From Beroe forskalii (lineage: Eukaryota; Ctenophora; Nuda; Beroida; Beroidae): a stretch of 64,000 bases of DNA. The DNA is taken from NCBI GenBank assembly GCA_011033025.1, contig WFMF01000001.1:2464057-2528056 (forward strand), given 5' to 3'. Positions 1 through 36,644 of the stretch are shown here, piece by piece. Every line of letters begins with the position of its first letter. Within the stretch, counting starts at the first letter, position 1. The translations under genes were made by a program, and so were the position numbers. Below the pieces are notes generated by a model, which saw only the letters and a list, made by a program, of their open reading frames with translations, searched no databases and was not told where the DNA came from.

Positions 1-180
1 ATTGCCTACCTCTGAAATTATCACTTTTTTATGTGCGACAGATTCCTTTAGCAGGAGCGCGGAGAGCGCACGGGCAATGGCCGGACACGACCCTTTGCCC
101 GGGAGATTTGATCACGTTGTATGAGCGATTCTCACACTCACCCGGCCACGCCACGGAGATTAGACACGATCCTCGTCACT

Positions 181-214
181 AACTCACCACTCTAAACCCT
201 GATAATGACGTCAT
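181..214 (-). repeat. CRE/GATA bipartite motif, copy A
   Basis: Read on the minus strand, this is ATGACGTCATTATCAGGG, then TTTAGAGTGGTGAGTTAGT. It is one of the best matches to the consensus built from the copies in the first 22 kb. Confidence 0.75.
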
Positions 215-1098
215 AATCACCCGCCATTTGCCGCGTGTTTTGCAGAGGACACAGCTTCGCGGCGGCGGCTGGTTCTGTAGTGTCACCAGGAAGATCTGGC
301 TTGCTCAATAGTCATGTTGATGATATGATAACCCTCTAGGGGAGGAAGGAGGTGGTGCAGAACATGATGAAGAGCTTGGTGTGAGATAATACACCTCTTG
401 TTACCAGTAATGGGCGGAAATTAACACGATAACTAGAGAGGATGATTTGTGGAGTTTTTTCAAAGGGCGTTCCCGTTCCTACTACACCACGGAGAGGAGA
501 GAATAGTGGATTATTTGACTCTTCCTGATCAGTGAATTGTCTAGCTGAGATTGAACATGTGAGTAAAGCCATATACTCCGGTGATATTATATATTATTTT
601 CCTAACATGTGAGAATATGAAGAAGAAGAAGTATAAAGGCCTTAAAGCCTTAATTTGCAGGTTTTCACACCACAGCAACTCTAATCACCATCATGAATTG
701 AAGGGGGAAAAGAGCGTTGCTTAGCGAATAATAGCTGGAGGGAAAAAGCTTTTAAAACATTTTAACTTTTTTATTAATAGTCTGATAAGGAGCTGTTCAT
801 TTTTCATTGGATCTGCGTAAATGAACATGACTGATGAGCAACAATGAGCATTTGCAATTTGCCCAAAATCTTATTCCTGGCCATTGATATACTTTCAAAG
901 TTGTGATTAACCATTATAAAATGAGGGTTTTGGATGGCCCACTATATCACCGCATCTCAATCCTGTAGAATGAAACTTGCAGACATCGTATCTCAGCGAT
1001 AAACATCTCTAGAAATAATATCTAAGAACTGCATATTCGATCATATTTTTGTCTTGTTTTTGCTTTTCCCGGACAACACACCGAAGTACGTTCCCTCT

Positions 1099-1127
1099 CT
1101 CCTCCTCCTCCTCCTCCTCCTCCTCCT
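1099..1127. repeat. (CTC)n microsatellite
   Basis: About nine uninterrupted CTC triplets. The frame read through it is poly-arginine on the minus strand and is not a gene. Confidence 0.9.
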
Positions 1128-1710
1128 GCTACATGTTTTCGAGACCCAATTCTTGGTCGGATAGACAACATACCCACATGCAGATGGGCCACGTCTTTCG
1201 TTCACCAAATCCTTCCACCAGAACATAATCCCAGCCTTCCAATGCTGCGTTCCGAGGTCATTTGCATCTCCTTCGGAGGGAGTATAAGCGAGGGGAAAGC
1301 CAATAACAGATATACCCTATCAGATCTGATATATATATTATATATCTCTTTTATCTATCAGTTCTAGCTATATATTTCTAATGTTTTATGAAAATGCTGT
1401 GATTTGAGACCGGAATGATAATTTGCCGGACAGCGAACCCCTGCTGTCGCCCGTCGCATCCCCAATGGAAAGCAATATTTTCCCTATATCTCCTGTATAA
1501 TTACAGACCTATATTTAGGCCTATATATATCTATGTAGGTATATATCGACATTCAGATATAAACCTAACTATCTCTGGCGGGATATAATCGAGAGATAGA
1601 TCAGGAAATGTTGTGAGATTCAGAGGCAGTTCCGTAATCTCAGATCCTGGGGCCCGGTCATATCTCAGATCACAAGTCTATGCAGGTTGCAAACAAACAG
1701 CAGATGACTG

Positions 1711-1757
1711 ATGGTGACGTCATTATCATAGCTGACAGTAGGGCTCTGATGACGTAG
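1711..1757 (+). repeat. CRE/GATA bipartite motif, copy B
   Basis: TGACGTCATTATCATAGC is intact. The right half is diverged, but a second GATGACGT follows about 25 bp later. Confidence 0.65.
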
Positions 1758-1954
1758 AGCTTACTCCTTGCCCGAGGATATGGCTTTTAACATTTGTCTT
1801 TTTCTGATAATATCCCGAATGAACAGTAATTGTTTTTCAAGGATCTATAATTATTATATCTATATACTCACAGGAACAAATTTCTCAAGAATGATGTCAC
1901 ATATTATCCTGCACGATCAATCATTGGCGACCAATGAGTCAATCGCAGGCGATG

Positions 1955-1998
1955 TTTAGATGTCATTATCATAGCGCAACATGATAAGTTGATGATGA
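1955..1998 (+). repeat. CRE/GATA bipartite motif, copy C
   Basis: ATGTCATTATCATAGC is followed by AAGTTGATGATGAGG. The CRE core has lost one half-site (GATGTCAT), but the spacing to the right half is kept. It lies about 240 bp from copy B in the same orientation. Confidence 0.65.
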
Positions 1999-3253
1999 GG
2001 GATTGCCTGCTTTTTACGACATGCGTTTAGAGATCTCTGAAGTGAGCCGGTATCAGGTGCTTGATTTAACAGCAGGTATTATATAATTTATGTGGTCGCA
2101 GAAACAATCATAATGTTAGCAGCTGCTAAACCTACGGAAAATAACCCGTTAAAATTCAAAGCGAAATCTGCACTTTATAAATCAAACCGGAAGTCGATAA
2201 GCATAAACGGAAAACGAACGCGGCTCAGACGTAAGGACTGCAAGATATTTGAAACAAAGCTCAAATATGTTCATTGTTCTTAAAATAGGGAATAATAAGG
2301 AGTTTGTGATTATGCAATTTGCAGACGTTTTGGCCATGCACATAGTAAACATAAGGAATGTAGTTGCCATGGTAACATATCCATAGTGAAGATAGTGACG
2401 TCATCAGTTACCAAATATGGGCAATAGATCGTACTGGGAAACACTCGTATAACTCGTAAGGTATGACAATTATTCAGTATATATTCGTGATGCCAATGTT
2501 TATATTTTCTTCTGTGTTTGGAGGAGCTAATACGCTATACACACAATGAGAGAATGAGGGAGGAGGTATCTGGATAACATCTGGAATAGCTTTCCAATAA
2601 CAGATGTGAACAAGATCTGGAAAGACCTTTCTACAAGATCTGGATGGATCTTTCGTGACAGTTTCACAATAAAACTACGACGAAAACGTTAATTTATCAG
2701 GGTTCTAGGCCATACCTTACATCTTATTCCATATACCAAGTGAACCATATCCAAATAACAGCATTGTAGCCCTACATTCCTCAAGGGGAAGCCGAATGTC
2801 CCAAAAATCTCTTGATTCTAGAACTGTTCATTATATCCATTTCACGAATGATTTAATAATACCCCCATGCGTCAAAAATGGAAAATATTCCAAATTTCAG
2901 CTACCCATTTTCAGAAGTTTAATCTTCACACCTTATTAAGTGCAGCTAACCTTTGTCTCGGACAACTTTGTGCCTGCCGTACTTTCCATCATTTTCAAAT
3001 ATTTGAGCTATTTTTCAAGGAATATAATATTATATATTTTTTAAAGAATTTTAAGGGAATAATAGTTCAATGAACTTTAATATACGATATGTTTTGTATG
3101 CGTATTATATACAAAACATTGAATAAAACAATGTTCCGGGAAGCCGGTCAAGCATTACATGCACTGTTCAATAGATTATCTGTAAAGAACCATTTAATAC
3201 GTGCCATAAACTTGTCAACCACTCGACCGTCCACGTGCACTAGACCTGTTCAA

Positions 3254-3296
3254 ATGACGTCATTATCATAGATTAAAATGGCTCATTGTTGACATC
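3254..3296 (+). repeat. CRE/GATA bipartite motif, copy D
   Basis: ATGACGTCATTATCATAG is followed by AATGGCTCATTGTTGACATC. A weaker relative, ending in CTAGAGTGGTGATGTTGTCAC, lies just downstream at 3318-3358. Confidence 0.65.
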
Positions 3297-3317
3297 ACAC
3301 CGTCTACCCTATTTTTG

Positions 3318-3358
3318 AGACATCATATTTTCTTTATCTAGAGTGGTGATGTTGTCAC
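3318..3358 (+). repeat. degenerate CRE/GATA motif
   Basis: The left half is eroded (GACATCATATTTTC). The right half TAGAGTGGTGATGTTG is recognisable at the correct distance. Confidence 0.4.
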
Positions 3359-3532
3359 TACCCTGCCTATATAAAACATGATAAGACATAGAAATTACAT
3401 AGTCCGTGGTATTAATAATTTGACCCGAATTTGGTGGTCGTGTAACTATCTTTAAAAGACTCCACCCGACTAAAATTTGTAAATTATCTCACTGCTAATA
3501 ATTTCGGAGTGAGAGAGGTGGTAACAGCTGCT

Positions 3533-3598
3533 CACGTGACTGTTCAAAAGGGTGACGTGACAGTTCAAACAGGTCACGCGACTGTTCTAGCAATTCAA
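3533..3598. repeat. 22-bp tandem repeat with E-box-like cores, three copies
   Basis: Three imperfect units read TCACGTGACTGTTC, TGACGTGACAGTTC and TCACGCGACTGTTC. The first contains a canonical CACGTG E-box. The third overlaps the end of the proposed terminal exon at 3587-3638, which weakens that exon call. Confidence 0.6.
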
Positions 3599-3638
3599 GT
3601 CATGCGAGTTTGTTTCCGGCCAATGATTTCCCGAAATT
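3587..3638 (-). CDS. candidate terminal coding exon of the PB1/zinc-finger gene model
   Basis: The exon follows a TTTTGTAG acceptor at 3639-3641 on the minus strand. It completes the split codon AG|A (Arg) left by the exon at 3879-3978, then reads ISGNHWPETNSHDLNC and stops at TAG (3587-3589). Phase agreement is the main support. The sequence is short, matches no family I know, and partly overlaps a small tandem repeat. I saw no AATAAA polyadenylation signal close downstream. Confidence 0.4.
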
Positions 3639-3878
3639 CTACAAAAGTTCACTGATCTGCGTCCTTTATTACGCGATTTAATAAAGTCATACCCCAAAAA
3701 ACATATTATGCATGTAAAAAGGTCAATTTGATAAAAATGAGATTTTATAAAGAAATAAGGGGTAAAAAGGTCGATCTGCGAAAAAAGTTGAAAAAAGTCA
3801 AGCTGCGATTTGGAGAAGCGTAATAAAAACTTGAAGCAAACAGTAATAAAATTTTCGAAAACTAAGAAAACCACTGAC

Positions 3879-3978
3879 CTTTGGCCCACAGTTTTGTTGA
3901 TGTGAGTGTTGTATTTGGCAGCCAGTAACTGAGCGGCTGTGTTATCTAAGCTCCTCCACGGCTTCACCAGATCAGCCC
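3879..3978 (-). CDS. coding exon, tail of the PB1/zinc-finger gene model
   Basis: This is a 100-nt exon on the minus strand, with acceptor ATTCCAG at its high-coordinate end and donor AAAG|GTCAGT at its low end. It reads GADLVKPWRSLDNTAAQLLA and continues AKYNTHINKTVGQ. The first two bases complete a Gly codon with the exon at 4128-4203, and the last two bases are carried over. The composition is clearly protein-like, with an amphipathic helical stretch rich in Ala, Leu and Asn. I do not recognise the family. It is probably the C-terminal region of a protein whose N-terminal parts lie at higher coordinates. Confidence 0.6.
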
Positions 3979-4127
3979 CTGGAATTATATTCTATTGGGA
4001 TTTTAAAATATTTCTATTGATTAGAAACTTAAATCAAGGAATCGGCCAAAATGACTTTCAGACAGAATTCAATGAAGCGAAGTTTACTGATAAAAACTAT
4101 GCAAGACGAATACCACTCATCTCATAC

Positions 4128-4203
4128 CTGAAGTGGCTGCTGCTGTACCAGCCACAGCTGCACCAGCCCCAGCACCACTCTTACTGGTACTGGTGCACGT
4201 GCT
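4128..4203 (-). CDS. coding exon, Ser/Thr- then Gly/Ala-rich linker
   Basis: This is a 76-nt minus-strand exon with acceptor TTCAAACAG and donor TTCAG|GTATGA. It starts in phase 0 and ends in phase 1. It reads STCTSTSKSGAGAGAAVAGT followed by AAATS, a low-complexity flexible linker. It joins in frame to the exon at 3879-3978. Its phase-0 start also fits the phase-0 end of the zinc-finger exon at 15935-16060, although that would need an intron of about 11.7 kb. Further exons may therefore exist in between. Confidence 0.6.
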
Positions 4204-5401
4204 CTGTTTGAAGGGAGGGAGAGAGGGAGGCAGGCCACTCTCCTAAAACCTGTAAGAGGGGAGTGGGTGAGAGCCTAAAACCTAGAGCCGAAAATGGGAG
4301 GGTTTAAGTCGGGGAAGATTCCTCAAGATTTGATGTTATGGCTATGAAAATAGTATAGGATTTTCTGATTTTTAGGCAATTAAAGATAGTGAAAATAAGG
4401 TGACTACGAAGAGTATTGGGTCTATTAGCAGGCTTAATAATAAAGTTTATGGACAAAAAGGCCACTATTATTATAGGTACACTTTCAGTTGGCTTATTTG
4501 AATCTGACAATATGACTTTCAAGCGGACTCCATTGATGAGCGACCTTTACCAATACTACTACACTACTATCTGCTCGGTAAGTTAAGAAGTTAGGCTCCA
4601 GTAATCGACCACTTCCCTTTCCCTATCTACCACTTCCTTCACAATACTCAAAATTAAGGGTGATTACTTGTTAATCAAGTCAGTAAATCTGTATTATAAT
4701 TTACCGATGGTCAAAATCACTGGACGTACTTCCGCCTGCTAATACACAACAATATTGTGCTTAATTGGAAAATTAAATGCACTTTAAACTGCAATTAGGC
4801 AGCTACCAAACAATCAATATATAATTACCGATAAAAGCGCTTTGGTTTTATGATCCGTTCCGTGGGGGACTTATCTATCGGAACGCTAATATCATTAAAT
4901 TACACCGATTATCGAAAGCTAAATCAACTCTTTATCTCCTCCATTGAGCCCAAACCTAGCAGTGGTTGAAAGTAAGCTGTATTGACGCTTTGTTAAGGAA
5001 CTTTAGAGAATTTTCATAACATCCAGATGACGCTAAATTAGGAAATTTATAAATTTTACTGTGATCAGGGACTCAAATTTTACTTTATTTGGGGTTGAAA
5101 AATCAGCACTTACAAATTTTTTCCTGAGCCCATACTTGTACTTTTGAATGCCATAATGATTTAGAATTATTCAAATATGCTGGTTTCATTTTCCAGGTAT
5201 TCGAGCATCACGTAGGTCGTAGAATAAAGAATTATTAATGACAAAAGTTTTAATGACTATGGTTATGACAAATGGGTAATATATGCAGGAAATTGACGTT
5301 TTGATTGCTGGAAAAAATATTGAGTAAAGAAATTTGAATAATTGCTGTTAAACTGACGATTGGGAAGTAAAGTTGTGCATAGAAAATAAGCGAGTGAGTT
5401 T

Positions 5402-5439
5402 GAGGTCATTATTATGATTTAGAGTGGTGGATTGATGAT
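5402..5439 (+). repeat. degenerate CRE/GATA motif, copy R
   Basis: GAGGTCATTATTATG is followed immediately by TTTAGAGTGGTGGATTGAT. The right half is almost consensus, while the CRE palindrome is broken. Confidence 0.5.
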
Positions 5440-6487
5440 TTCAAATCGCATACTTTTCATTCGAGACTTGAAATAATGCATTAACTATAACAGAATTACT
5501 CGGTTATTTGTCATCTTCAATAGGGCCTTGGATTATAGAGGGATATTCGAAAAATAGAGAAATAGGTGTCAAGGCAAAACTTTGACAATTCCTCGCATAA
5601 ATGTATATAATTTGCAAAATATATCAAAGATTTTTTGAAGGTGACAGATTATTATTGTGATTCATTATACGTGGCCGGTTTGACAAAGAAAATCGAAATA
5701 ATCACATTAACCAAAATTAATTTGAATATTTTGGTTACTGTATATAAAATATCAGTCTCTTGGCTGATATAGCATAAAATGTGCTCAAAAACGTTCGTTT
5801 ACAGTGAATTAGTGAGCGAGATTAAGATTGTCAACGCCTGAAAATTTTTGTTTGACATGAAAATAATAGTAAACAAAGTGGTGGTATCCCATTGGTCAAG
5901 CCCAGAGCTGAAGTTATTTGAACAATTTTCTTGCTCATTTCAAAATATCTACCTGTTTCGAAGGAAAATAATTTTTGCTCATGTTAGCTCGCTTCAACTA
6001 AATTCTCCTCGATTCGATCATCGAAAGCGAGGTTATATCACCATCAGCTCAAAATATGCCGCATCACAAAAATTCTGAATCACTAATAATGTTACCGTAC
6101 ACATAACTAATCTACCCGTGTGGTTTTTTATATATATATTCTAAATTCAAGGTATATATTTTATATATTTCTCGATATATATATTTTATATATTAAGTTA
6201 TAGTTACGATCCGCATTTATATATATATAACGTAAAACAACGTATTCTTACAATACCACCGGGTAGGCTTCAAATTGATTTTTAACGACAAAACAACGAT
6301 CCTTTTCCTCCATTTGCCCTCTCCCCCTCCGTCTCTCTCCATCTCTCGGATCAGACATTTCGCTACTCTTTTTATTATATAGCACAGATTAACAATTGTC
6401 GGGTGATAGCGGGCGAGTTTACGGAAATCCGTAAGTGTCACCGTAAATCTGAGTGCGAACAAGGAAAAAACGCGCCAGTAATATGCT

Positions 6488-6532
6488 GACACGTCATCAA
6501 CTCACCACGCTAAACCCTGATAATGACGTCAC
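6488..6532 (-). repeat. CRE/GATA bipartite motif, copy E
   Basis: Near-perfect consensus on the minus strand: GTGACGTCATTATCAGGG, then TTTAGCGTGGTGAGTTGATG, continuing into ACGTGTC. It lies about 190 bp from copy F in divergent arrangement. Confidence 0.75.
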
Positions 6533-6720
6533 TCTCAACTATCTACATGCTTCACGCGAGAGAGTTCATGTGATCGATGGTAAATGAGCGTCCCGTCAAA
6601 GTGTCGTGCCTACATAGTTTCTAGATAGACCCCACGCCACGGACATTCCCATCATCTCCCACTCCCAATTACTCATCTACTCTCCTCCACTTATATCAAC
6701 ATGGATTAGGCGGGTTACAG

Positions 6721-6765
6721 TGACATCATTATCAGGAGTAGGAATGGGGAATAGTGCCATGTCAC
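6721..6765 (+). repeat. CRE/GATA bipartite motif, copy F
   Basis: TGACATCATTATCAGG is followed by AGTAGGAATGGGGAATAG. The CRE has one substitution. Confidence 0.6.
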
Positions 6766-7549
6766 GGATCAGGGTGTTTTTCACTCTGCGCGCGCGCGTT
6801 CAATCTATCAGTTCTTGAGTACCTATATATATATATTGAATAACAAAAAAAATATATATTCAAGTGTACGGAGTATAATATAAAGCTAAAGGTCAAATTT
6901 GGTCGCTGCGCTCTGTTCCAAAAGATGTTATGAGGATTTGTCGGTTAATTATTTTGTATCAGTGTTGAGATGGTACCCTCGAAAATGGGCAGTTCTTTAT
7001 ACTTCAGCTGACGGTGCTGACAAGGTGTACCATTCGTACGTAACTGTGTCAATTTAATTTCATTAAATTTATAGCCAGCTACAATATATTTAGCTCAGAT
7101 GCGCCCGGATCTTTTGCTAATATATATTTTATACGTTTTTTTACAATATATACCAAAAAATAGTATATATATGGAAGATGTAACGCGCGCACAAGCGAAT
7201 CGTTTAAATTCTGTATATTTCCGAAAGTGGCAGGGAATCTTGTAAAGTTGTAAGGGATGCATATCCGTGATAACTGCACAAGCAATTTGCGAGATCGGCC
7301 GAAACACGTTACACGATATTGTGCAGTTTAGGAAAAGTACGGTATTTTTTGTATTCAGTTCAAAGCACTATAGGCATGACATCACTTTCAAATATTCTGT
7401 TCGCGATTTAGTAAATTTTATATTATTTGAGTCAAAGATTAGAGTTAAAACGGCCGTGACTCTGAACGCATGCAGTCAAGGTGGCTCTGTATCTCTGACT
7501 GGCGTGGGTTTCTAATCTGTTACTCGACAAATAGGCGTTTCAACCTCAT

Positions 7550-7586
7550 CTTCTCACTACTTTGAGGTATGATAATGGCGTCATCA
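7550..7586 (-). repeat. CRE/GATA bipartite motif, copy V
   Basis: The minus strand reads GTGATGACGCCATTATCATA, then CCTCAAAGTAGTGAGA. It has one change in the CRE core, and the right half is shortened. Confidence 0.55.
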
Positions 7587-8307
7587 CAACATGGAATATC
7601 ATTGAGCTGTGACCGTTACTATAATTTTCCATGAACGTTATATTTCAAAATCAAAGCAAAATGTAGCAGCTGTCAGCGGTAACACCTATAAAATTTGTAA
7701 AATTGATTTAAAAATCTGTCCGATAAAGTAAAAGCTTGTGCGATATCAGCTGAAGACTGACGATATACTGATATATATTTGAACTTTATCATATTTATCT
7801 ATCTTTTTATATATTCCTTGTCAAAGCAGTTGAGCGAGGCCTTGACCATATCACGATTGAACGATAGCGGTTTTTCTATGAGGAAGCTGCTTGAGTGTGC
7901 GTGTTTTCGTGTCCGAAGGGTTTTGGCAATGCTTGAGACTTGAGTATATAAAAGATATGCAAAGAAAAAAAGAAAGAATTTGATTTTCCGAAACATTTTG
8001 GTTTCAGTCCAAGTTTATATACTGAGACCAACTCTACGAACAAAACATGGGCCATAATATTATATGGTTTTGGTACTTGAACAGTGTGCTCAATAGTAAT
8101 TTCCCTGTTTTCGTAGCTAGTATAAAACATATACTTGTGTTTAAATACATACACCCTGTATATATTTATGTGTATATAATTTCCATCTGATATCTGGATC
8201 CTGGAAATGAAGATAGTCCGAAGTGACAGTAGCTGTGAAGTGTGGCATCGAACTCGAAACTGAGCTGCTCGAACTACTGGGTGCTCAGAAATCCAGCAGA
8301 CGAAGGA

Positions 8308-8348
8308 GATGACGTCATTATCATGGCACAATGTGGTGAGTTGATGAG
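8308..8348 (+). repeat. CRE/GATA bipartite motif, copy G
   Basis: GATGACGTCATTATCATGGC is followed by ACAATGTGGTGAGTTGATGA, close to consensus. It faces copy H across about 310 bp. Confidence 0.75.
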
Positions 8349-8655
8349 TTTTATAAACCTTTTCATGCGAGCAGGGGGTTTAATTGGTAGAGCAGATAGG
8401 CCAGATGTCGGATATATGATATATATTCTCCCTCATATATTTTGTACGGAATTGTATTTTAACCGGTAAGAACGAAATTTTAAACCAACTCTTTTGCTCT
8501 ATTGATTATCTCTATCGATTCAGGGAGATTTCCAGCCCTTAATAAAGACCGTTAGATCCTGCTTCTGGCTCTCTTGCAGTGGTGAGGTAATAAATAACGT
8601 ATGAAAACCCTGGCCTCCGTCTAAACCACCCAACGCGATAAAAGCAGGCGGTTAT

Positions 8656-8700
8656 CAACGTCATCAACTCACCATTCTAAGCCATGATAATGACATCATC
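8656..8700 (-). repeat. CRE/GATA bipartite motif, copy H
   Basis: The minus strand reads GATGATGTCATTATCATGGC, then TTAGAATGGTGAGTTGATGA, then CGTTG. It forms an inward-facing pair with copy G. Confidence 0.75.
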
Positions 8701-9332
8701 ACCACCATCTATATTTACCTGGCGAGCATTTTATCAGTGGATCAAAACATGGAACTAAGTGCCAGTATATGTACAAATATATATATACCATATCTTACAT
8801 AATTCATAAATGTCTCAACATCAGCTTTCAAGGTATGCCTGGCTCGCTGCCTGTTGGACCACAGTGCGCCAGCTAACCAGTCGCGGCCTACATAGATTTA
8901 TATATATTCAATCATTATCATATACACATATCATATATAATATATCACATAATAACATGTATAATATATTCGGCCTGAAGATCAGAGATATATCTAGCGT
9001 ATATATATTTTCTATAAATTCTGGGATTGGGAACAGCCTGGTTATATAAATATTACCTCTTCTCCACACGGCGTATGTTCCGAGATGTTTGGGAGACCTC
9101 CCTCCACACAGAACGTTATTGGTTCTGATATTTCCGATACAGATTATGCAATGTCGAATAAAAGCAGTGCACGGGAGGGGAAATTACTCCCAGTTATCCT
9201 ATATATAACGTACGGGTTTCACGTCTTTTGTCTGGTCAATCAATGATAATTAACGGTAACTCTTGGCAGTGACCGAGACAGAGAGAAAGAGCCATATTAT
9301 GGAGGAGTGGACGGAAGACTAGGCGAGTGGAC

Positions 9333-9378
9333 GATGACGTCATTATCATAGCTTAATTTGGTGAATTGCTGATATCAG
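9333..9378 (+). repeat. CRE/GATA bipartite motif, copy I
   Basis: GATGACGTCATTATCATAGC is followed by TTAATTTGGTGAATTGCTGA and TATC. Both halves are well conserved. Confidence 0.75.
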
Positions 9379-9489
9379 ACAGTCTGTTGGTATGGTACGC
9401 CAGACATGTATATGTATGTATGTTGCTGTTGTTGGAAAGATGTTCATTGGGTCGCCTGCACGTGGCCAAGGGATCTCAGGCAGATCTAG

Positions 9490-9666
9490 TGGGAGCTGGT
9501 CGTCCCTAACGGTACCGAGTACAGGAAAGGAAACTGGAAAGTCCGTGGTGGGGTTATATTCTCTGATGTCCGAGTGGCAGCCAAGTGGAACTTAGCCAAG
9601 GCTCAAAGTATGGTTACAGCACATGGTAGGAAAGGGGATGTGGTTACAGTCGACAAAACCCCTTGA
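9490..9666 (+). CDS. weak candidate terminal exon, unknown product
   Basis: After a possible GCAGATCTAG acceptor there is an open frame of 58 codons ending in TGA. It begins WELVVPNGTEYRKGNWKV and ends RKGDVVTVDKTP. The residue pattern and locally higher GC look more coding than the surroundings. No upstream partner exon was found, the acceptor lacks a strong pyrimidine tract, and I recognise no family. It could be a pseudogene fragment or chance. Confidence 0.22.
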   Translation, partial: WELVVPNGTEYRKGNWKVRGGVIFSDVRVAAKWNLAKAQSMVTAHGRKGDVVTVDKTP

Positions 9667-9756
9667 GAAGTTGCAGTTGCAGTAGCTACTATGGAGCTAT
9701 TATCAGTGTACTGAGCGTCTGCAGTCTAGAGACCGTGCAGAGTGTGTTTCGATATA

Positions 9757-9819
9757 AAATCTACAGGACTTAGGCAGGAAATGTCCTGTAGGAAATCTAC
9801 AGGACTTAGGCAGGAAATG
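9757..9819. repeat. 36-bp direct repeat, 1.75 copies
   Basis: The block beginning AAATCTACAGGACTTAGGC at 9757 recurs exactly at 9793 over 27 bp. Confidence 0.85.
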
Positions 9820-10577
9820 GCATGGATAAAACTCCTGGCTATGCAGGAATACTAAATATTTCTGCGAAGAACTAGGAAAAGTGAAAGCCTGACGTTAAGG
9901 CTTCATAGACTCGCGCCTGTCGGATCCATTTTGGGATGTATCTAGTTTAGACCCAAAGTCCGAAGAGTGAAGGTTTTAACCAACATAGCAATATGGATTA
10001 TGGACCCAATAAGACGCCGTAGAGGCGTCCAGATTATTTTATTGTCTAAGTACATTTCCTCTTCATCATGTTCCATGAAGTAAATAAAGAAATTCGCTAG
10101 ATGCAGAACTGGCAGCAACAGCAAGAGCTTTCCCTCTTCAGAGTTTTACTACAAAAAGTTTCAGTGTTATGTTGTTGTTATAAAGTCATGCTACCATAAC
10201 TTCCATCATCATAGTAGAGTAGTAGACACTGAGAGCTATTTTCAATATTTGGGTATTCCTCTTGCAGCGTGCAATATGCCGGAATATATGAGCCCTGCCC
10301 CGGAAATAAATAGGCGGTTCAAGGCCCAACAAATCACTTCTCCCAGGTATGAAAATGACATAACTCTCTCCTGAAATACCATCCGGAGGAAGCCTCCAGC
10401 AAGACAAAGGTGAGGCCGAGCGTCATTTAAATTTATATTGAATTTCCAAATTTTCATGCTAATGGCGTTCCAAATTCAGGTACATAATTCAACGGTCCGT
10501 CATGCAATTGAACCTTATTAGTTGGAGAAAACATCGCAAGTTGAAAGTGACAGTATGAATAATTTATTGAGGATTAA

Positions 10578-10650
10578 GTCACGTGGGCTGAAAAGGGTCA
10601 CGTGATAAATTGGAAAACCAATAGCAACGCTCCATGGTGACCCACGTGAG
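10578..10650. promoter_or_regulatory. cluster of three CACGTG E-boxes
   Basis: GTCACGTGGG (10578), GTCACGTGAT (10597) and CCCACGTGAG (10641) lie within 73 bp. CACGTG is the known binding core of bHLH-Zip factors of the USF/MITF/TFE type. Function at this site is inferred only from the clustering. Confidence 0.4.
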
Positions 10651-13269: not shown

Positions 13270-13309
13270 TGACGTCATTATCAGGACCGAAAGTGGTAAA
13301 AGGGTGACG
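13270..13309 (+). repeat. CRE/GATA bipartite motif, copy J
   Basis: TGACGTCATTATCAGGACC is followed by GAAAGTGGTAAAAGGGTGAC. It faces copy K across about 210 bp, so the two look like terminal inverted repeats of a 290-bp unit. Confidence 0.7.
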
Positions 13310-13520
13310 TTTTTCCAGCAGATGTAAGTATATTTTCTAATGGTTCTAATGAAATTAGTTGGGTGTCGTTATGCAGCCGATATGGGTTAAACCAGCCTGG
13401 GGCACAGAGCGAAGAGCGTCGTGTTAAATTGCACTTGGCTCCAGTATAGAGGTTAATCAAATGATTGAGTAAAACTATAAAGGCCCAGCACATACTACTG
13501 GTTCTGAGTGACGTTGGCCA

Positions 13521-13562
13521 GGTCATCAATTCACCATTCTAAACCCTGATAGTGACGTCATC
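13521..13562 (-). repeat. CRE/GATA bipartite motif, copy K
   Basis: The minus strand reads GATGACGTCACTATCAGGG, then TTTAGAATGGTGAATTGATG. It is near consensus and is the partner of copy J. Confidence 0.75.
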
Positions 13563-15192
13563 TGCTTACTATCCTCACACCACCAATGATGTACCAGATG
13601 GATATGTTTATCATTTCATATAGCCTGAACTCACGTTAAATGTGTCCCTAAAGATGAAAATAGCCGGCCTCGGGCATCTACTTGTATAACCGAATGTGAT
13701 ATGACCAAGATGTACTTTGACAAAGGAAGTAGCTGACTTTCAAGCGCATTTTTGAATTTTCCCAATTTCTAAGTAATCTATTTTTGCAAGATACCACGTT
13801 ATAAAATATCTTAAGTCATTTCCACTCGACAGTCCAATCGTGGGAAGGATTATAATCTGCAAGTCAAATCATATGCGGAAATTAATTATTTCTCCAGCTT
13901 ATACCACTAAAACTGGAGCATATGGAATTAATATTATTATTAATTATGATATTAGCTTTGATATTAAATCTTATTTCGCCAACCTACCACTGAGATGTTG
14001 ATTTAAATTATGATTTCCACTTCTATCTAAAATATATGTTAATATGGAACTTCCAGGGGATTATTATAACTCTAAGAAAATATAAAATGTTGATTGGTTT
14101 TTTGGCTCAGCATGACTGGACCAATGGAGCTACAGGATTACATTTTTTCGTGCATCACACAATGTCTTGGTGTCGTAACTTTAGCAAAGTGTTATGCTTA
14201 TTTACTTATTTAACACCAGATCGTTATATTGATATATACTACCCAAACCTGACATAAGCTCAAAGACTTGTGATTTGTATAACGCAATGTCATTGATTTA
14301 TTAACGTCTGATTTAACCAGCTCGGTTATATCAACGCTTATAAGCTTATATACTATTCGAGTTGCTGATATAATGCTTATATACTAATCCTCCAAGAGTG
14401 ATTTACAACATTACATCATGTCAAGCATGTCGGTAATTTTGACAGTGGATGGAAATTGAAACTTTCTCCGGAAACCGAAATGTTAGCAGCAAAGCTGAAA
14501 GTTTTCCTCATCAAAATTTGTCAACTTTTTTTTTTATTAATTAACGTCTATGTAAAATTTCCTCTGACTCATTTTATTCTTTGAGGAAAGCATCCCAACT
14601 TTTCCCAATAGTAAAAACTCAACAGATGGAAACCGTAATTTCGAAATTTCCTCTAAAGACTATTCTAATGAAGAATTTCCAGACAATTTTCTAAAATAAT
14701 TGGGCAATTATTCCTCCAATTTCTCCGATACTTCCATAAAATTATTTTCAATATCGGCGTAGTATATGATCATCAAAAGCCTACAAATTAATATAAAACG
14801 GAGGCCCTGTCCCTCCACGTTACACCGTCAAATTCCTCCCTCTCACATACTTACACATAATATTATAGGTGTACCTAGTGAAAATAATTAATCTCACCTG
14901 CCTCGGATCATTGGCTAATCCATCGGATAAATTATTGACCATCGATGTACGCAAGGGGGGAATCAACGAAAATTGCATCGGACTCGATGATATTATTAAA
15001 GTAACAGGTAGTCCTAAAGTTGATTAATTATGCTCGGCAGCATAATAATACTGCTGGGGGAATATTATAACCTTTGGTATATCTCTGGAGGTAGAATTGT
15101 AGCTCAGCAGAGAGAGGATTATAGGGAGGCATATCCAATCAAAATGCCGATATAAACACATGCACATATATACTCCGCTTATAAAAATACCC

Positions 15193-15240
15193 TCGTCAAC
15201 GTCCACAAAACACTATGTTAAGCCATGATAATGACGTCAC
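15193..15240 (-). repeat. CRE/GATA bipartite motif, copy L
   Basis: The minus strand reads GTGACGTCATTATCATGGC, then TTAACATAGTGTTTTGTGG and ACGTTGACG. The left half is exact and the right half is diverged. Confidence 0.65.
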
Positions 15241-15391
15241 TCTTCTCAGCCAATCACAGGCGGAGCATGTACCGCCAATCCAATATATATAGGTATCAGT
15301 ATTCTGAGCGAGATAGGGAGCTCCTTATAGATAGGGTTCAGTGGTTTGGTATCCGGTCAAGGGAATAGCCATTTAAAAGTAATGTTCTGAG

Positions 15392-15434
15392 AATGACGTC
15401 ATTATCAGGACGTCACACGCTCAACTGATGACTC
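15392..15434 (+). repeat. CRE/GATA bipartite motif, copy M
   Basis: AATGACGTCATTATCAGGAC is followed by GTCACACGCTCAACTGATGAC. It is divergent to copy L, 150 bp away. Confidence 0.65.
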
Positions 15435-15934
15435 AAGAATGTCTATTTTCTCTGAATCTCTGAAGATGCTCTTGTGAATTAATTTAAAAACTCTTCGAGG
15501 GATGTATTAATACTTGCACATGTCATGGTGGAGGCTGTGGCCGCAAATTTTAATTAACTGAAAGACCGGGGAGAAATTCTTAGTTTTAGGGTGGTCAGAA
15601 AAGTTATAATGAATTAAAAAGGGTTTAGGAGTAGCTGTAGCTCTAATAAAGCACAGATCTAAGATCATGCAACTTGATGGGATTTGTGTCGTGGTTTCAG
15701 AAAGGGTGATTGGATCTTATAGCGATACAACCTTGGAAATTATAGAATGACAAACTCATAAAGATTATTTGGGATAAAAATTTGAAGTCGACGGGATTCG
15801 ATGTCTTACATGTATGGTACGCTAAAACTGACAAAATATCCTATATTGCTTTGTGTACTTACATGGTAACTCAAGATATATTAAGCGCTATATTTATTGA
15901 TAAATTGAGAGGAAATTGAGAAATAAGTACTCAC

Positions 15935-16060
15935 ATGGTAAGTCAGGGCCATAATGTGGATGTCGGACTTGGTATGAGATTTGATAATGTTCAGGTCGAT
16001 GGTCGGGCACATGGTCCGACCACTGGGGCACAGCCGACACACAACGACACCGTCTTCTAT
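15935..16060 (-). CDS. coding exon with U1/matrin-like C2H2 zinc finger
   Basis: This is a 126-nt minus-strand exon of exactly 42 codons, phase 0 at both ends. The acceptor is CTATTTCACTATTTCAG and the donor is TACCAT|GTGAGT. It begins IEDGVVVCRLCPSGRTMCPT and ends IMALTYH. The residues C-x2-C, then 17 residues, then H-x5-H (KSHTKSDIHI) match the spacing style of U1-like/matrin zinc fingers, which bind double-stranded or structured RNA, or DNA. A third Cys (TMC) sits inside the loop. It follows in phase from the exon at 17914. The function of the whole protein is unknown. The finger assignment rests on the visible Cys/His pattern only. Confidence 0.65.
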
Positions 16061-17913
16061 CTGAAATAGTGAAATAGTGACATAGTGAAATAGAATTACC
16101 TTCATAGTCATATCACAAAGATAATGTAACGCCAGACCAAAACTCAGTTCCAATTTATCTCTGAAATAGTGGAAAAGTTAATGCCATTGCACCAAAATAG
16201 TAATAATTCGTTAATAATTTTCAATCATGAAAATTATGCCAAGTTTGGCCAACAATGTAGCTGTTTCATACACATTCTAAGGTTCTATACCGCCCTCAAT
16301 TTGAAATAACAAATAATTTAAATTTAATTTAATTGATTTAGACCTATGGCATTGCAATGAATTCATAGTTCTCAACAATATTCTGAAACAATAATGGGAA
16401 ACCAATGCAAATCACCAACAGGAAAATTTGCAAAAAGCTCTTTCATCCGTAGGTGACTAAACGCGCGCGCAATGTAGTACCAAGTTACACAGAAATTTTG
16501 GCACTTGTAGGTCTGTGAAACACATTTTGAAATATTTGGATGTGTATTTTTGTATTTTTAAGTGAATATATACACATATTACAGTCCATTGTACGACTGA
16601 TTGATTGTATAGGCTTATGCACTCTTATTTTCATTCTTCCTCTGTGCTTGGTATGTGTTTATGCAGTGAACTATGCCATCAACGAACCACGATCTCGTTT
16701 ATGTTATACTTATAGCATAAATGTTTAAGTATAACATATGATTTCACGTTTACAAAAGTAACAAAGATGTCCATCTGTAATCGTTGATAGAATAAATAAA
16801 GTCAACAGGCTGTATTGCAAAGATTCGTTAATTTGACTGCGTGTGATGGCCCTACCAAAAGCAGAATTTCACGTAGAAATTAAAAATGGCATTCCAAATA
16901 CCGTACGATGAAGGTTTTAACTAATATTGTCCAATGCTCAACCAACCAAATTCATTTGGGTGTGCAGGACAGCTGGAATTCGCCCAGTTCGAGGTTTGGA
17001 CTCTCAATCAATGAACAATTTAACTTGTTATAGATTGGTCCTAAAGTCCACCCATTCCAAGGAGTACCAGTTGCATTGACACGTGCCCAGGATGGTTTAC
17101 ACAGGAGGAGAGAGATACCTACGTATATATTCGTTCCTATTAGAAGGCAAAGGATATAATATAAAACGTAAAGATTTATTATATTATCATAGCTGGCACG
17201 CAGCTGCTCTTTTTTGTCGATTTCACTGAACGCCGATTTTGGTGTACGCACGAACAAATGCAGAGCGCGTATGATGATTAATTGGTCTAACTATATAATT
17301 ATTATGTAAATATACAAGTTATTCATAGGATCCTGTATAACTCCCTGCAAACCTCACCGATTATCAGCGGAGGAATGCGCGCGCGTTTTCCTGCACCGCG
17401 CGTAAAATATGGGCGGTGCTCGAATGCAGTCCGATTATATTATGTGTAATAATTTATCATTTAATTCAACACATCATTCTGAAGACATTGGTGATATAGT
17501 CATTATATCTAAGGTCTGTTAGTCTTTTTATCGCTCGGATTTAAAAATCCTCTCCACCCAAGAGACTCACCACTACTGACATCATAGTTCATATTCATCG
17601 GCCAGCCAACAAAAAACGGCAATTTGATAATTGTAATCATCAAAATATGTTCATTTTTTGCAACAAACTTCTATAATGATTTTGATCCAATCTACACCCC
17701 TTTTAAAATTTAAATTACTCCGGTGCATTTCTCCCCATTTTGTCCACTGCGTGTCCCCTCGGACAAAAGAGAAAACGGGGACTTGATGGGGCAGTCAATG
17801 AACAATTAAACATTAGTTATCAATTTCCCAGTTCAAAGCTGAAATAACTGCGTCATCAAACCTCCTTCTCTCTTAAAATTCACCTTGAAACCTCCTTTTC
17901 TCCTAAAACTTAC

Positions 17914-18003
17914 CTCGAACTGTCGCTTTGGCTTCCCGTCGAAGGAGGTGAAGATGTTGGGCACCACCACCGGCTCCTCACCAACGTTCTTACTGCCTCG
18001 TGA
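17914..18003 (-). CDS. coding exon preceding the zinc-finger exon
   Basis: This minus-strand exon ends at a strong donor, TTCGAG|GTAAGT (phase 0). It reads SKNVGEEPVVVPNIFTSFDG then KPKRQFE, and it joins in frame to IEDGVVV of the next exon. Two acceptors are possible. CCTTATAG at 18004 gives a 90-nt exon in phase 0, starting Ser-Arg-Gly. The AG seven bases further in gives an 83-nt exon (17914-17996) starting in phase 1. Only the second choice is compatible with direct splicing from the phase-1 exon at 25356-25431; with the first, that junction would hit a stop. An intermediate exon would remove this conflict. Confidence 0.65.
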
Positions 18004-18294
18004 CTATAAGGGGTAAAAGTGGGGTTTCATGATTTCACTTCAAGGGAAGCTGTCACATATTATTACGTCATCAACCAGAGGGGGAGGGGGTTTCCAAATG
18101 ATGACAGATGATTACAGAGGGGAGGGAGGGGTAAAAATGGTAGAAATTAATGATGATGTAATATTTGCTTATTTGATGTGATAGGGCTGCCCTGGCCTCA
18201 GACCCCTGCTGCACTAGGGAGAGGTGCAGCACTTAAACCATGTGATATTCTGCATGGCAGATCGGAGGTTATGTGGGTAGGGTGAGTGGGGCCG

Positions 18295-18330
18295 ATGACG
18301 TCATCATCAGGGCCTGGAGTGGGCATGTGG
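18295..18330 (+). repeat. CRE/GATA bipartite motif, copy N
   Basis: TGACGTCATCATCAGGGC is followed by CTGGAGTGGGCATG. It is a tandem neighbour of copy O, 240 bp away. Confidence 0.6.
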
Positions 18331-18534
18331 ACCACCGTGGATGCCTATTTTTGTGTGGACGACAATTATTTACTACCCTTCGGATATAATTGCTTAGAAA
18401 TAATTGCCCTGAAATAAAGGCTAGTTGGACAAGCCAGAAGAATAAATAGGCTATGGGCTACAACACAAATTTCCCCATCCGCAAATCAGCTGAGTAGTAT
18501 TAATATGCGCTCAAAACAAGTCAGGCAGTTACCC

Positions 18535-18572
18535 ATGACGTCATTATCAAAGCTTAACATGGGGCGTTTTGG
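18535..18572 (+). repeat. CRE/GATA bipartite motif, copy O
   Basis: TGACGTCATTATCAAAGC is followed by TTAACATGGGGCG. The left half is exact and the right half is weak. Confidence 0.65.
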
Positions 18573-21146
18573 CAACGCAGGAGCGCCTACCCAGGGAGGC
18601 CGGGCTGTATTAGACGTTGGCATACGCCCGCTAATGGAGCCGATAATAAAATCATGATATATTTAGAAGATATAATCACGGTGGAAGACAAATATATTCG
18701 ACCCACTTAAGTTCGGAGAAGCACGCATAATCATGGCAAAGTAATAGGTTCATCTTTTCTTCAGGGCTAAAACTGAAAACAGTAATTTTATCATTATCTA
18801 TAGGAAGTAGGGGTAATTATGAGGAATAGAACTAATCCATTATATTATCATATATATATCATCAATAATGGGAGCTCTATATTAGCTGCCTGCGTGCCAC
18901 TGGTGGTCCAATAGACATTTACCAATTACTAATGCAAGACTGTAGCATTGTTTTATACTCGGCTCCAATAAACTCCTCCAACTCCATAGAGCTAACGTAT
19001 ATAAATATATATATAAAAATATATATTATATAGAACCTTATAATATTATAGGCGGAGCAATCAAAAATGATCTCGTTAATAATGAATACACCAAGACTGC
19101 TGCTGCAGCAAACGTAAAACACACGATCCTTAGGTAATATTATATTTAGTTTGAACCGTCGGAGAAAATTCGGCGTATATATTTCGCTATAATAGAATAT
19201 ATTTTATGAAGGAGTAGGCTGGTGGATGAGGGTAAGATGAGAGAGAGAAATAGCGAGGCCTTTTCTCATAACATCTAGCATATCAGAGACCACCAATATT
19301 ATAAAATGTGCAATTTCGGAAATTTAGAATATACATTTATAGGAAATATATATTTATATCATTTAAATTGCATCATATTCATAGGTATATGTTGGATCGA
19401 ATAAGGGGAAGAATAGGGGGAAGAGAATTATGAATTGGCTGATATATTAGACAAAGCGAACTTTCCGTCGCTTCCCCTCAAAACGATGCAGCGATTCCCT
19501 ATATCCACGGAATATATATATAACATAATACGAGTATTTAAAGATTTAATATCGGTAATATAGATTTTCTATATATACGCCGGGTGAAGGGCAATCAGAC
19601 CATTAATAACTCCTCCAACAATTACTGTAGATTATAGATGGGGTTTGATGGGAAATTCTCTCGTATATTATGATATGTTGAAATATAGCAATAAATAAAT
19701 ATCAGCTAATACGTAACACTGCGCGCGCGGCAAGGGATCATGTGATTGTAGAAGCTGTAAACGCTTCACAATATCGAGGTGGCATGGCATGGCACAGTAT
19801 AGATATAAAATAAAGGTACAGTATCTGATAATAGGATAATATATAGGATATATGTTAGACCAGCCTGAAAGTTGATAAAATCGCGTCTAAGTTGGAGATC
19901 ATGGCAACCAATTAAAATATTGTACTCTTATAAGAATTTAATTAGTTCTTCTCGTCAAGTACTACAACGAAAATATAATAGAGCAAGAAAGAAATTGGAA
20001 GAATGAAGTTTATAGACAATTATCACTATGTAGCCAGAAAGTCTGAAATTTGCCCTATCATAGGACTCTGTCTATTCTTTACACCATTGATATATTTCAA
20101 GTACTATTTTTCTCTTTTGGGGAGATATGTGTTTTTCTCAACCTCTCCAGCCACTTATTCAGAAAAGAATCCTTTATCAAAAATTTTACGCAAGAACTGG
20201 TTAAGCTCCCTAAACCTGTTCATTGAGGAGATCGCTATCGACATTCCAATCTTGGTATTTAATTAGTGACCGCTCTCTCTCTCTCTCTCCCCAAAAAAGA
20301 CTCCGCAAAGTTTTTCCTACAAAGCCAAAATCACAAATGAGTACCTGTGAGCCACATGGTATGTGTCACGTGATGGGTGAGAGGGAAGCTGATTGGCTCA
20401 TAACTTGGTCATCCAGCGCCATTATTGGCCTAATCCTGAGCATCACATAGGTATATATATATATAGGTAAGAATTTATATTACAAGTAAAAATTGTTGAA
20501 TGTTGTAGAACTTGTTACAAATATATAAATGGCATCCACACACTCATTCGTATATAAAAAATATAAATGTGGTTTCGGGAGATCGAGTGAAAAACAGGGT
20601 AAATTGAAAATATAGTAATCTAAACTCAGCTAAACGAGGGAAATTCGGGGTTATTGGTGTTCTGTGGTAAAATTCATGAGAAAATTTTTGTTTTCCTCGG
20701 TATTAGGGACCCGAACAACACAGTGTAATAAGTATTTATTATTTACATCAAACCCTACTCAACAGTCAACAAGAACGCATTTCAGCAGTTTTAGAAGTGA
20801 AAAAGCAGCAGAACCGGTCACTATTTATTGTGAGTCTCAGGATTTCATTACCAGCAATAGATTCTTATAATAATGCTCAAATGACAGCGATAACGAATAA
20901 AGACGAAACTAATTTTATCCTTTACCTCCCTACTCATCTGAAATGCCTGCGAGAGCAACGAATATAATATCAATGATAATAAAAGTTTATTACACCAAAA
21001 TCCATTCTAATAAATTTGACGGTATCATTGATGTGCCAAGATTACAACCAATAGTCCTCGTGAATATAAGAATATGGCACCATGCTGGGAGATGAATTCG
21101 GATTTCTGACACAATCATATGAAGGACTAAAAGACTAGCCAAAGAG

Positions 21147-21188
21147 ACGCCATTGACATGGTTTAGAATGGCAAACCGATGAGATCAC
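21147..21188 (+). repeat. degenerate CRE/GATA motif, copy T
   Basis: GACGCCATTGACATGG is followed by TTTAGAATGGCAAACCGATG. The order and spacing of both halves are kept, but the CRE palindrome is lost. Confidence 0.4.
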
Positions 21189-21718
21189 AACAAGGAATAT
21201 ATGCTATCACCAGCCACGAAATATAGTGAGAGGAAATTAAGTTATTGGATTTTACTGGTAAGACCAGTGGAGAGGACACAAAGAAATAAAGGAATGTTAT
21301 AATGGCTTTGAGGAGTGAAATCATATGAAGAGAGTCAGAGCTAAGCGAGGGTTATGATAGTATGGTTTTCCGAATTAACGGATAACCGATAACGGAATCG
21401 AGTATGAAAGTATGAAGCTAGGAATTTGAAGGTTGCCATTCAATTTATTAGATAGGACCGGTTTCTATAATCTACCATTTTGTCCAAACAACATCTCTTT
21501 TGCGATTGCTCTGACAGATGACCTTGAAAGGCACATCTTCAAATTATCGTAAAAAATCCGTGATTTAACCTTTTAAATCAATCTACTGTGTATTGAGAAT
21601 TAGCTCATGGGTGATTGAATCTGCTTGTCGCCACACCCTCATTAATAAGATAATACCCACATGGTATAACATATTCCGATACCAGATGAGTGAACAACCG
21701 CCCACCATTTCACCGTCT

Positions 21719-21763
21719 TACGTCACCAATATTCCGACTCTAAGCCCTGATAATGACGTCATC
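21719..21763 (-). repeat. CRE/GATA bipartite motif, copy P
   Basis: The minus strand reads GATGACGTCATTATCAGGGC, then TTAGAGTCGGAATATTGGTG. It forms a divergent pair with copy Q, 70 bp away. Confidence 0.7.
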
Positions 21764-21833
21764 CAATGCCTACTCATGTATATGCTCGACCTATATAACA
21801 TTCCCACCCGAGGAATTATAAGCGGTTATAAAA

Positions 21834-21876
21834 TTACGTCATTTTCATGTGGGAATGTGGTAAGTTTATGACGTTG
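21834..21876 (+). repeat. CRE/GATA bipartite motif, copy Q
   Basis: TTACGTCATTTTCATGTGGG is followed by AATGTGGTAAGTTTATGACG. This is the rightmost recognisable copy of the family. Confidence 0.6.
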
Positions 21877-22053
21877 AACCGCCTATTTTTCTTTTCTCCC
21901 CCAAGTGAGCCTCCCACCGGGGAGGCAATGTGACATTTTGAGAACTAAACAATTTGTTACACAATATATATAATTAATTAAAGATAATTTGAAGTCGGTA
22001 GGGGGTATTTTATTAAGCTTCAATTTTCCCACCCAATCGGTGGAGGGCTGCGT

Positions 22054-25927: not shown

Positions 25928-26097
25928 CTTGTAAGAATATATCTTACTTATAAAGTTATAATTAGATATTGCTCAACAAATATAATTACATGTGTCAAAT
26001 CAGATGTTTGTCAAAATTGAAGTCTTCATTAAAAATCACAAGCACTCATGATATGATTCAATTTAATTTATTTGCAAAAATTAAATATCTGACTCAC

Positions 26098-31321: not shown

Positions 31322-31460
31322 GGATATTGTAGGATGTTACCCTACCCTCCGCCGCGCACGCAAGGTTTTCCGGGTGAGTCTCCCATATAAACGGGAGCCT
31401 TCATTATTTATGACAATGACGTCACCCAGAAAAATATAATTAAGCGCACCTAGCCCAGCA
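31322..31460 (+). repeat. repeat module with CCCATATAAACGG box and CRE
   Basis: GTAGGATGTTACCC is followed by CTCCCATATAAACGGGAGCC, then ATGACAATGACGTCACCCAG and AATTAAGCGCACCTAGC. The second half reappears at 57.28-57.35 kb, and the CCCATATAAACGG box also appears at 60.32 kb. Confidence 0.65.
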
Positions 31461-36607: not shown

Positions 36608-36644
36608 CGTACTTTGGTCAATCAAATATGAATTCGCACTGTTT

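What the first reader, a model, noticed from the sequence alone, without database searches (positions are those of the whole stretch)
181..21876. A dispersed, paired 45-bp CRE/GATA bipartite motif confined to the first 22 kb
About 17 good and several degraded copies share TGACGTCATTATCA, then about 8 bp, then (T)TAGAGTGGTGAGTTGATGA. They occur on both strands and mostly in pairs 60-400 bp apart (8308/8700 inward, 13270/13562 inward, 6488/6721 divergent, 15193/15392 divergent, 21719/21834 divergent). Flanking DNA is not conserved, which is unlike ordinary transposon copies. The left half is a perfect CRE palindrome fused to a GATA site. I found none between 22 and 64 kb apart from unrelated CREs. 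It could be a regulatory element repeated across long introns, a set of small-RNA promoters, or tiny TIR elements.
Basis: partly seen in the sequence, partly recalled or inferred. Interest (0 to 1): 0.78.

Follow-up and report, generated by a model that had tools for sequence, protein, structure and literature searches.

The report
Comb-jelly mini-transposon with conserved CRE-like core
The repeated motif is the middle of a tiny, very numerous transposon in what is most probably a comb-jelly genome; in old copies its ends have decayed while its CRE/GATA-like middle is kept better, which hints, without proving it, that a DNA-binding protein uses it.

Summary
The motif is real but not special to this window. 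The window is the last 64 kb of a contig in a 216-Mb genome, most probably a ctenophore's. The exact 14-mer TGACGTCATTATCA occurs 7,719 times there (reversed control 3). Young copies keep both arms. The window's ~20 copies are old; their arms survive only as traces, so the flanks looked unconserved. Some cores have become 35-bp tandem arrays.

Pairing in the window is not significant (7 gaps of 400 bp or less, 5.8 expected). Absence from 22-64 kb is unremarkable (1.5 exact copies expected). Local density is not: on contig C1 exact 14-mers cluster (16 in 25 kb), and the window's first 22 kb holds 11.

The unusual part is unequal decay. In 50 old copies, a core block not used for selection beats the right arm in 35 and loses in 8 (p=1e-6), CpG sites excluded. 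This fits a preserved protein-binding site (CRE plus GATA-like), but no binding, chromatin or expression data were available. Regulatory function is inferred; transposon origin is well supported.

The parts
153..237 (-). old copy of the ~105-bp element; core with 0 mismatches in the 30-bp pattern
   Evidence: full-element HMM match E 1.8e-4; core
1711..1774 (+). old copy, exact 14-mer, diverged middle
   Evidence: HMM E 1.8e-5
1958..2029 (+). old copy, diverged
   Evidence: HMM E 5e-4
2390..2403 (-). degraded left half (2 mismatches)
   Evidence: could be chance on its own
3255..3295 (+). old core copy, exact 14-mer
5401..5441 (+). old core copy
6471..6560 (-). old copy with near-consensus 41-bp core (1 mismatch)
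   Evidence: HMM E 2.7e-5
6721..6761 (+). old core copy with an ATTAGGCGGG left-arm trace
7523..7588 (-). old copy with a good right arm (AAACGCCTATTTGTCG)
   Evidence: HMM E 1.9e-9
8301..8369 (+). old copy
   Evidence: HMM E 9.8e-7
8634..8722 (-). old copy; core 2 mismatches; right-arm trace AACCGCCTGC
   Evidence: HMM E 2.1e-7
9317..9388 (+). old copy
   Evidence: HMM E 3e-6
13270..13310 (+). old core copy, left-arm trace GCAGGCG
13520..13560 (-). old core copy
15185..15265 (-). old copy
   Evidence: HMM E 4.1e-5
15394..15434 (+). exact 14-mer, right part decayed
18296..18336 (+). degraded core copy (1 mismatch in the 14-mer)
18536..18576 (+). exact 14-mer, right part decayed
21721..21761 (-). 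old core copy, exact 14-mer
21807..21891 (+). old copy with traces of both arms (AAGCGGTTATAAAA ... GAACCGCCTATTTTTC)
   Evidence: HMM E 2e-7
10308..10375 (-). possible copy seen from the arm side: intact arm AAATAGGCGGTTCA, decayed core
   Evidence: arm-selected list, judged by eye

Best explanation
What it is (well supported): a MITE-like family of non-coding, ~105-bp imperfect palindromes in a genome that is most probably a ctenophore's. Left arm WACGCCGCGCGCGAGAAATAGGCGG, a short link, then a 41-bp core TGACGTCATTATCA-NNNN-(old TTARARTGGTGA or young TCAATGTAGTGA)-RTTGATGACGT, then the inverted arm, flanked by TA. It presumably spread by cut-and-paste with a transposase supplied in trans (inferred). 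Young copies keep both arms; the window's copies are old, with arms nearly gone and the core better kept. Unequal recombination between the two TGACGT boxes 35 bp apart would explain the 35-bp tandem arrays (inferred). How it most likely works (inferred, about even odds): the core is a composite protein-binding site, a perfect CRE (bZIP) fused to a GATA-like TTATCA with a second CRE half-site 35 bp on, and is held back from decay because a host factor uses it, or because losing it is harmful. Islands of ~25 kb may be regulatory or insertion-prone regions where copies accumulated.
For: Arm 17-mer: 843 places with up to 1 mismatch, control 0; arm plus core 1,657, control 0. 17 distinct near-full-length copies with TA at both ends in 13. 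Ten window stretches match the full-element model at E 1.9e-9 to 5e-4. Arm traces in 54 old-lineage copies, p=1e-14 and 5e-13. Unequal decay: copies picked by the right block with up to 2 mismatches (n=44) have a perfect CRE in 24, perfect arm 8-mers in 7 and 7; 79 genome-wide exact right cores have perfect TTATCA in 44, left-arm 8-mer in 2, right-arm 8-mer in 3; 50 lineage-pure old copies, CpG-free 7-mers: core better in 35, right arm better in 8, p=1.4e-6. 35-bp array junctions: 613, control 0.
Against: No transposase, empty site or certain target duplication was found; TTA (8 of 17) is not excluded. No binding, chromatin or expression data. The decay test fades in the smallest set (n=7: p=0.125 and 0.06; n=17: p=0.08 and 0.013). 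Some arm-bearing copies have lost the core, so it is not kept everywhere. Indels between core and arms could lower arm identity, only partly allowed for. Tandem arrays could feed core sequence back by gene conversion.
Confidence: 0.6

Rival explanations
1. A purely neutral MITE family; the core only looks better kept because of how copies were found, of indels, or of subfamily structure.
For: Many copies were fetched by core patterns; two lineages differ in the middle and in the link next to the CRE; small subsets do not reach significance (n=7 and left arm at n=17); some arm-selected copies have lost the core.
Against: The compared blocks were not used for selection; the effect holds in a lineage-pure, CpG-free, equal-length paired test (35 against 8) and genome-wide (44 against 2 and 3 of 79, the first a 6-mer, the others 8-mers).
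Confidence: 0.25
2. The core spreads or is homogenised apart from the arms: 35-bp tandem arrays act as donors by gene conversion or re-insertion, so that many core copies never had arms or were refreshed.
For: 613 array junctions; array units share the old-lineage sequence; perfect cores without visible arms exist, e.g. L030, L032, L034.
Against: Old-lineage copies as a group keep traces of both arms (p=1e-14, 5e-13), and old cores with an intact ATAGGCGG arm exist (C186, C408).
Confidence: 0.12
3. The core is the ctenophore chromatin-loop motif bound by CTEP1/CTEP2 (Kim et al. 2025).
For: Most probably a ctenophore; thousands of copies; the core has two CpGs, as that motif has.
Against: The paper calls its motif GC-rich; TGACGTCATTATCA is not. 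The logo is a figure and could not be read.
Confidence: 0.03
4. Promoters of small RNAs, or hairpin precursors of small RNAs.
For: Young copies fold as near-perfect hairpins (z -8.45 and -8.78), and copies form dense islands.
Against: 2 of 3 old window copies fold no better than shuffles; no Rfam match in the window. No small-RNA data were available.
Confidence: 0.03

Closest known systems
[quoted passage not shown]
   Same: Short, non-coding, long inverted repeats, high copy number, TA at the ends
   Different: The centre is better kept than the inverted repeats in old copies; superfamily unknown
Placozoan Mutator TIRs at chromatin-loop anchors (Kim et al. 2025, PMC12221973; abstract, section 9 and passages seen)
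   Same: A transposon sequence that is also a recurrent, possibly used DNA motif in a non-bilaterian animal
   Different: There the motif lies in the TIR and loops were measured; here it lies in the centre and nothing was measured
Ctenophore loop-anchor motif bound by CTEP1/CTEP2 (PMC12221973)
   Same: Two CpGs, thousands of sites, ctenophore
   Different: Described as GC-rich; the present core is not; the logo could not be read
Tandem repeats born inside MITEs or other non-autonomous elements (Porphyromonas MITE minisatellite PMC4596501; oyster Helentron satellite-like repeats PMC7492417; listing and start of abstract seen)
   Same: A short segment carried by a mobile element also exists as a tandem array
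   Different: Here the 35-bp unit equals the distance between two TGACGT boxes in the core, and arrays look like a minority (613 junctions against 4,308 cores, different patterns)
Transcription-factor sites derived from repeats in mammals (PMC2397414; listing and start of abstract seen)
   Same: Regulatory-looking sites carried by repeats
   Different: Other phylum, other element class, no binding data here

Membership tests
MITE | Terminal inverted repeats | tested here: met
   ~26-bp arms; 843 arm 17-mers, control 0; about 20 of 24 arm-selected loci show both arms by eye, some right arms shortened
MITE | Short, without coding capacity | tested here: met
   17 near-full-length copies of 107-114 bp
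MITE | High copy number | tested here: met
   1,657 arm-plus-core places; 7,719 exact 14-mers
MITE | Target-site duplication | tested here: inconclusive
   TA at both ends in 13 of 17, TTA in 8 of 17, best of the offsets scanned; L061 and L067 share flanks, so 16 independent insertions; no empty site looked for
MITE | An autonomous relative with the same ends | not tested
   No search for a transposase between such ends was made
Minisatellite | Head-to-tail array of one unit | tested here: met
   35-bp unit, 20.1 copies in L020; 613 junctions genome-wide; only part of the family
CRE/bZIP-bound regulatory element | Protein binding and effect on transcription | not testable with these tools
   Only the site sequence (CRE and GATA names are from recall) and its slower decay are seen
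Ctenophore CTEP loop-anchor motif | GC-rich motif with two CpGs | tested here: inconclusive
   Two CpGs are present; the core is not GC-rich; the published logo was not readable
Clustered small-RNA promoters | A small RNA starts at a fixed distance from each motif | not testable with these tools
   No small-RNA data

The most novel reading that the evidence does not exclude
A MITE carried a composite CRE-GATA binding site to thousands of places in a ctenophore genome, and selection has kept the site after the transposon ends died, most densely in ~25-kb islands that would then be transposon-built regulatory or architectural hubs in a lineage branching near the base of animals.
Probability: 0.2. 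Interest if true: 0.8.

Novelty: new variant of a known kind. Interest (0 to 1): 0.45.

Why it matters
If the core is a used binding site, this is a transposon-wired regulatory network in an early-branching animal, where chromatin loops and transposable elements have already been linked (PMC12221973). It is directly testable with the ATAC-seq, methylation and Micro-C data which that paper made for M. leidyi. If it is not used, it is still a good case of a MITE whose interior turns into minisatellites and whose decayed copies look like isolated regulatory motifs.

Tried and rejected
Rejected: (1) A feature special to the window (7,719 exact 14-mers genome-wide). (2) Pairing as a design feature (p=0.34). 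(3) An RNA gene or known RNA family in the window (0 Rfam matches at gathering scores, 0 tRNAs). (4) Viral contigs: 0 exact matches of the core pattern (the tool may leave out near relatives of this genome). (5) A first guess from recall that this was the ctenophore CTEP motif: the paper calls that motif GC-rich, so it is kept only as a low rival. (6) A 5-base spacer: 48 places against 4,308 with 4 bases. (7) Species: ctenophore is supported but the species is open. Four iGluR queries were searched; the two alignments-bearing comparisons to ML032222a are not near identity, and for L047 no ctenophore entry was among the 60 shown. (8) Literature: searches (ctenophore with MITE/TIR words; 20 of 1,163 papers listed; ctenophore with transposon/GATA/CREB/enhancer; 12 of 139 listed, all 12 with no mention of ctenophore) showed no paper on such an element; some searches were read as listings. 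This does not prove absence from print.

Weak points: one search's 50 'single' copies and one search's 102 mix lineages and include loci chosen by the core; the left arm sits one base further out in the old lineage, so fixed-position profiles understate it. One search's 53 copies include some opposite-strand readings of the palindromic CRE. assumes that one search's list (first 100 of 7,719 places) is complete on both strands to 2.04 Mb of C1, because its minus rows stop there. My notebook says 8 sites at C1:514-538 kb; a recount gives 7.
Full report
WHAT WAS CHECKED. The left half TGACGTCATTATCA, allowing 3 mismatches, occurs 39 times in the window against 6.7 expected in shuffles; the right half with up to 3 mismatches occurs 6 times against 0.02. 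About 20 distinct copies lie in the first 22 kb. The window is the last 64 kb of contig C1 (2,528,056 bp) of a 216,145,372-bp genome in 1,134 contigs; large tandem arrays and telomere-like ACCCTA repeats lie between 28 and 61 kb.

GENOME-WIDE COUNTS. Exact 14-mer: 7,719 places, reversed control 3. Core TGACGTCATTATCA-N4-TTAGAGTGGTGA with up to 3 mismatches: 4,308 places, control 0; with a 5-base spacer only 48, control 0. The tool calls such counts lower bounds. The motif is not confined to 22 kb. At one exact copy per 28 kb the empty 42 kb of the window is unremarkable (1.5 expected), while 11 exact copies in 22 kb is about 14 times the average (0.79 expected).

ORGANISM. Contig C1134 (13,339 bp) carries a very divergent COX1 with TGA codons in frame and AGA where arginine is usual (my reading), fitting code 4. 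The ligand domain of one intronless iGluR gene (L048) has ML032222a iGluR, a Mnemiopsis protein by its name (recalled), as its best solved relative (211 bits), then 4zdm (163 bits; to my recollection from Pleurobrachia), then kainate 5 and NMDA 1 receptors (159 and 157 bits). For two full-length queries kainate 2 scores higher in total (241 and 209 bits), with ML032222a at 216 and 195 bits over 256 residues; a fourth query, L047, had AMPA and kainate receptors on top and no ctenophore entry among the 60 shown. Most probably a ctenophore; species open.

ANATOMY. In L041 and L002 the core sits between inverted arms GCGCGCGAGAAATAGGCGG and CCGCCTATTTCTCGCGCGC or close variants. The arm 17-mer alone occurs 843 times with up to 1 mismatch (control 0), arm plus core 1,657 times with up to 3 mismatches (control 0). 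Of 24 loci fetched by the arm, about 20 show both arms around the core by eye; L062, L065, L066 and L073 do not. 17 distinct near-full-length copies measure 107-114 bp (ends extrapolated from the seed model); among the offsets scanned the best shared flank is TA, at both ends in 13 of 17, with TTA in 8 of 17. Two of the 17 (L061, L067) share their flanks. Two young copies fold as near-perfect hairpins (z -8.45 and -8.78). The element is a MITE-like palindrome. Ten stretches of the window match the full model (E 1.9e-9 to 5e-4): the window's copies are old members.

TWO LINEAGES AND ARRAYS. Young copies read GTAGGA-TGACGTCATTATCATAGCTCAATGTAGTGAGTTGATGACGTTGAA in the middle; old ones read ATAGGCGGTTGAGAG-TGACGTCATTATCA-NNNN-TTARARTGGTGARTTGATGACGT. 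The core holds TGACGT twice, 35 bp apart; array junctions of this period occur 613 times with up to 3 mismatches (control 0), and L020 holds 20 copies in a row. Unequal crossing-over between the two boxes would make such arrays (inference).

UNEQUAL DECAY. Each test compares parts not used to find the copies. (1) 53 non-array copies chosen by the left half only: right core identity 0.68 (control 0.38), middle 0.59 (0.35), left arm 0.51 (0.35), right arm 0.46 (0.32). (2) Copies chosen by the right block only: with up to 2 mismatches, n=44, perfect CRE 8-mer in 24, left-arm 8-mer in 7, right-arm 8-mer in 7, p=0.003 and 0.0002; up to 1 mismatch, n=17, p=0.08 and 0.013; none, n=7, p=0.125 and 0.06. 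(3) Genome-wide, 79 places have an exact right core not followed by an array unit: TTATCA is perfect in 44, ATAGGCGG of the left arm in 2, CCGCCTAT of the right arm in 3, with some slack in spacing for the arms. Per position that is about 0.91 against 0.63 and 0.66. (4) In 54 copies nearest the old lineage the excess over control is 0.36 and 0.35 for the two arms and 0.68 for the right core block; in 23 young copies 0.70, 0.76 and 0.86. (5) In 50 lineage-pure old copies, with CpG-free pieces: left arm 0.34, right arm 0.19, link next to the CRE 0.30, right core 0.57 excess; paired 7-mers with equal slack favour the core over the right arm in 35, the arm in 8, ties 7, p=1.4e-6. So neither CpG decay nor lineage mixing explains it. 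Against this, some arm-selected copies have lost the core, so it is not kept everywhere.

CLUSTERS, NOT PAIRS. In the window 7 of 19 gaps are 400 bp or less, 5.8 expected, p=0.34. On C1, 75 exact sites lie in the first 2.04 Mb (69 after collapsing a tandem array); 16 fall within 25 kb, while 10,000 uniform simulations never exceed 9. The cluster at C1:326-352 kb shows 24 14-mer matches with up to 1 mismatch (two of them opposite-strand readings of the same CRE), from young copies with both arms to old ones. Only C1 was examined in this way. Whether clusters are insertion hot spots, gene-poor refuges or regulatory regions is unknown.

HOW IT MOST LIKELY WORKS. Shown: a palindromic repeat family with old and young copies and array offshoots, whose centre outlives its ends. 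Inferred: transposition in trans; a host protein binding the CRE (bZIP) and perhaps the GATA-like box; selection against loss of that site. 2 of 3 old window copies have lost the hairpin, which speaks against an RNA-hairpin role. About even odds for the binding-site step; the MITE step about 0.9.

COMPARISON WITH THE KNOWN. Kim et al. 2025 (PMC12221973; abstract, section 9 and passages seen) report M. leidyi loop anchors with a GC-rich motif with two CpGs, bound by CTEP1 and CTEP2, and placozoan loop anchors whose motif lies in Mutator TIRs. The present core has two CpGs but is not GC-rich; identity could not be tested because the logo is a figure. Two ctenophore papers were seen in passages only and added nothing on this element (PMC6991124; PMC11184263).

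Noticed in passing
window 32744-36608: A 21-bp satellite runs ~87 copies one way and then ~98 copies as its reverse complement: a nearly 4-kb inverted repeat.
   Followed up: no
window 40563-40895: A 40- to 43-bp tandem array carries the right half TTTAGAGTGGTGA (8 matches with up to 2 mismatches) without the CRE half; relation to the element unexplained.
   Followed up: partly
window 31411-31424 and 57309-57322: Two copies of another repeat with similar flanks both carry TGACGTCATTGTCA, one mismatch from the 14-mer.
   Followed up: no
window 26071-26331 (-): An exon-like ORF with a PB1 domain (Pfam PF00564, E 2.3e-6).
   Followed up: partly
window 60422-61354: Degenerate ACCCTA (telomere-like) repeats about 3 kb before the end of contig C1.
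   Followed up: no
C161:90,442 (L061) and C161:443,836 (L067): The same element insertion with matching flanks at two places of one contig: a duplication or an assembly fold.
   Followed up: no
L046, L048, L049: Ionotropic glutamate receptor genes open over 961-979 codons without introns.
   Followed up: partly
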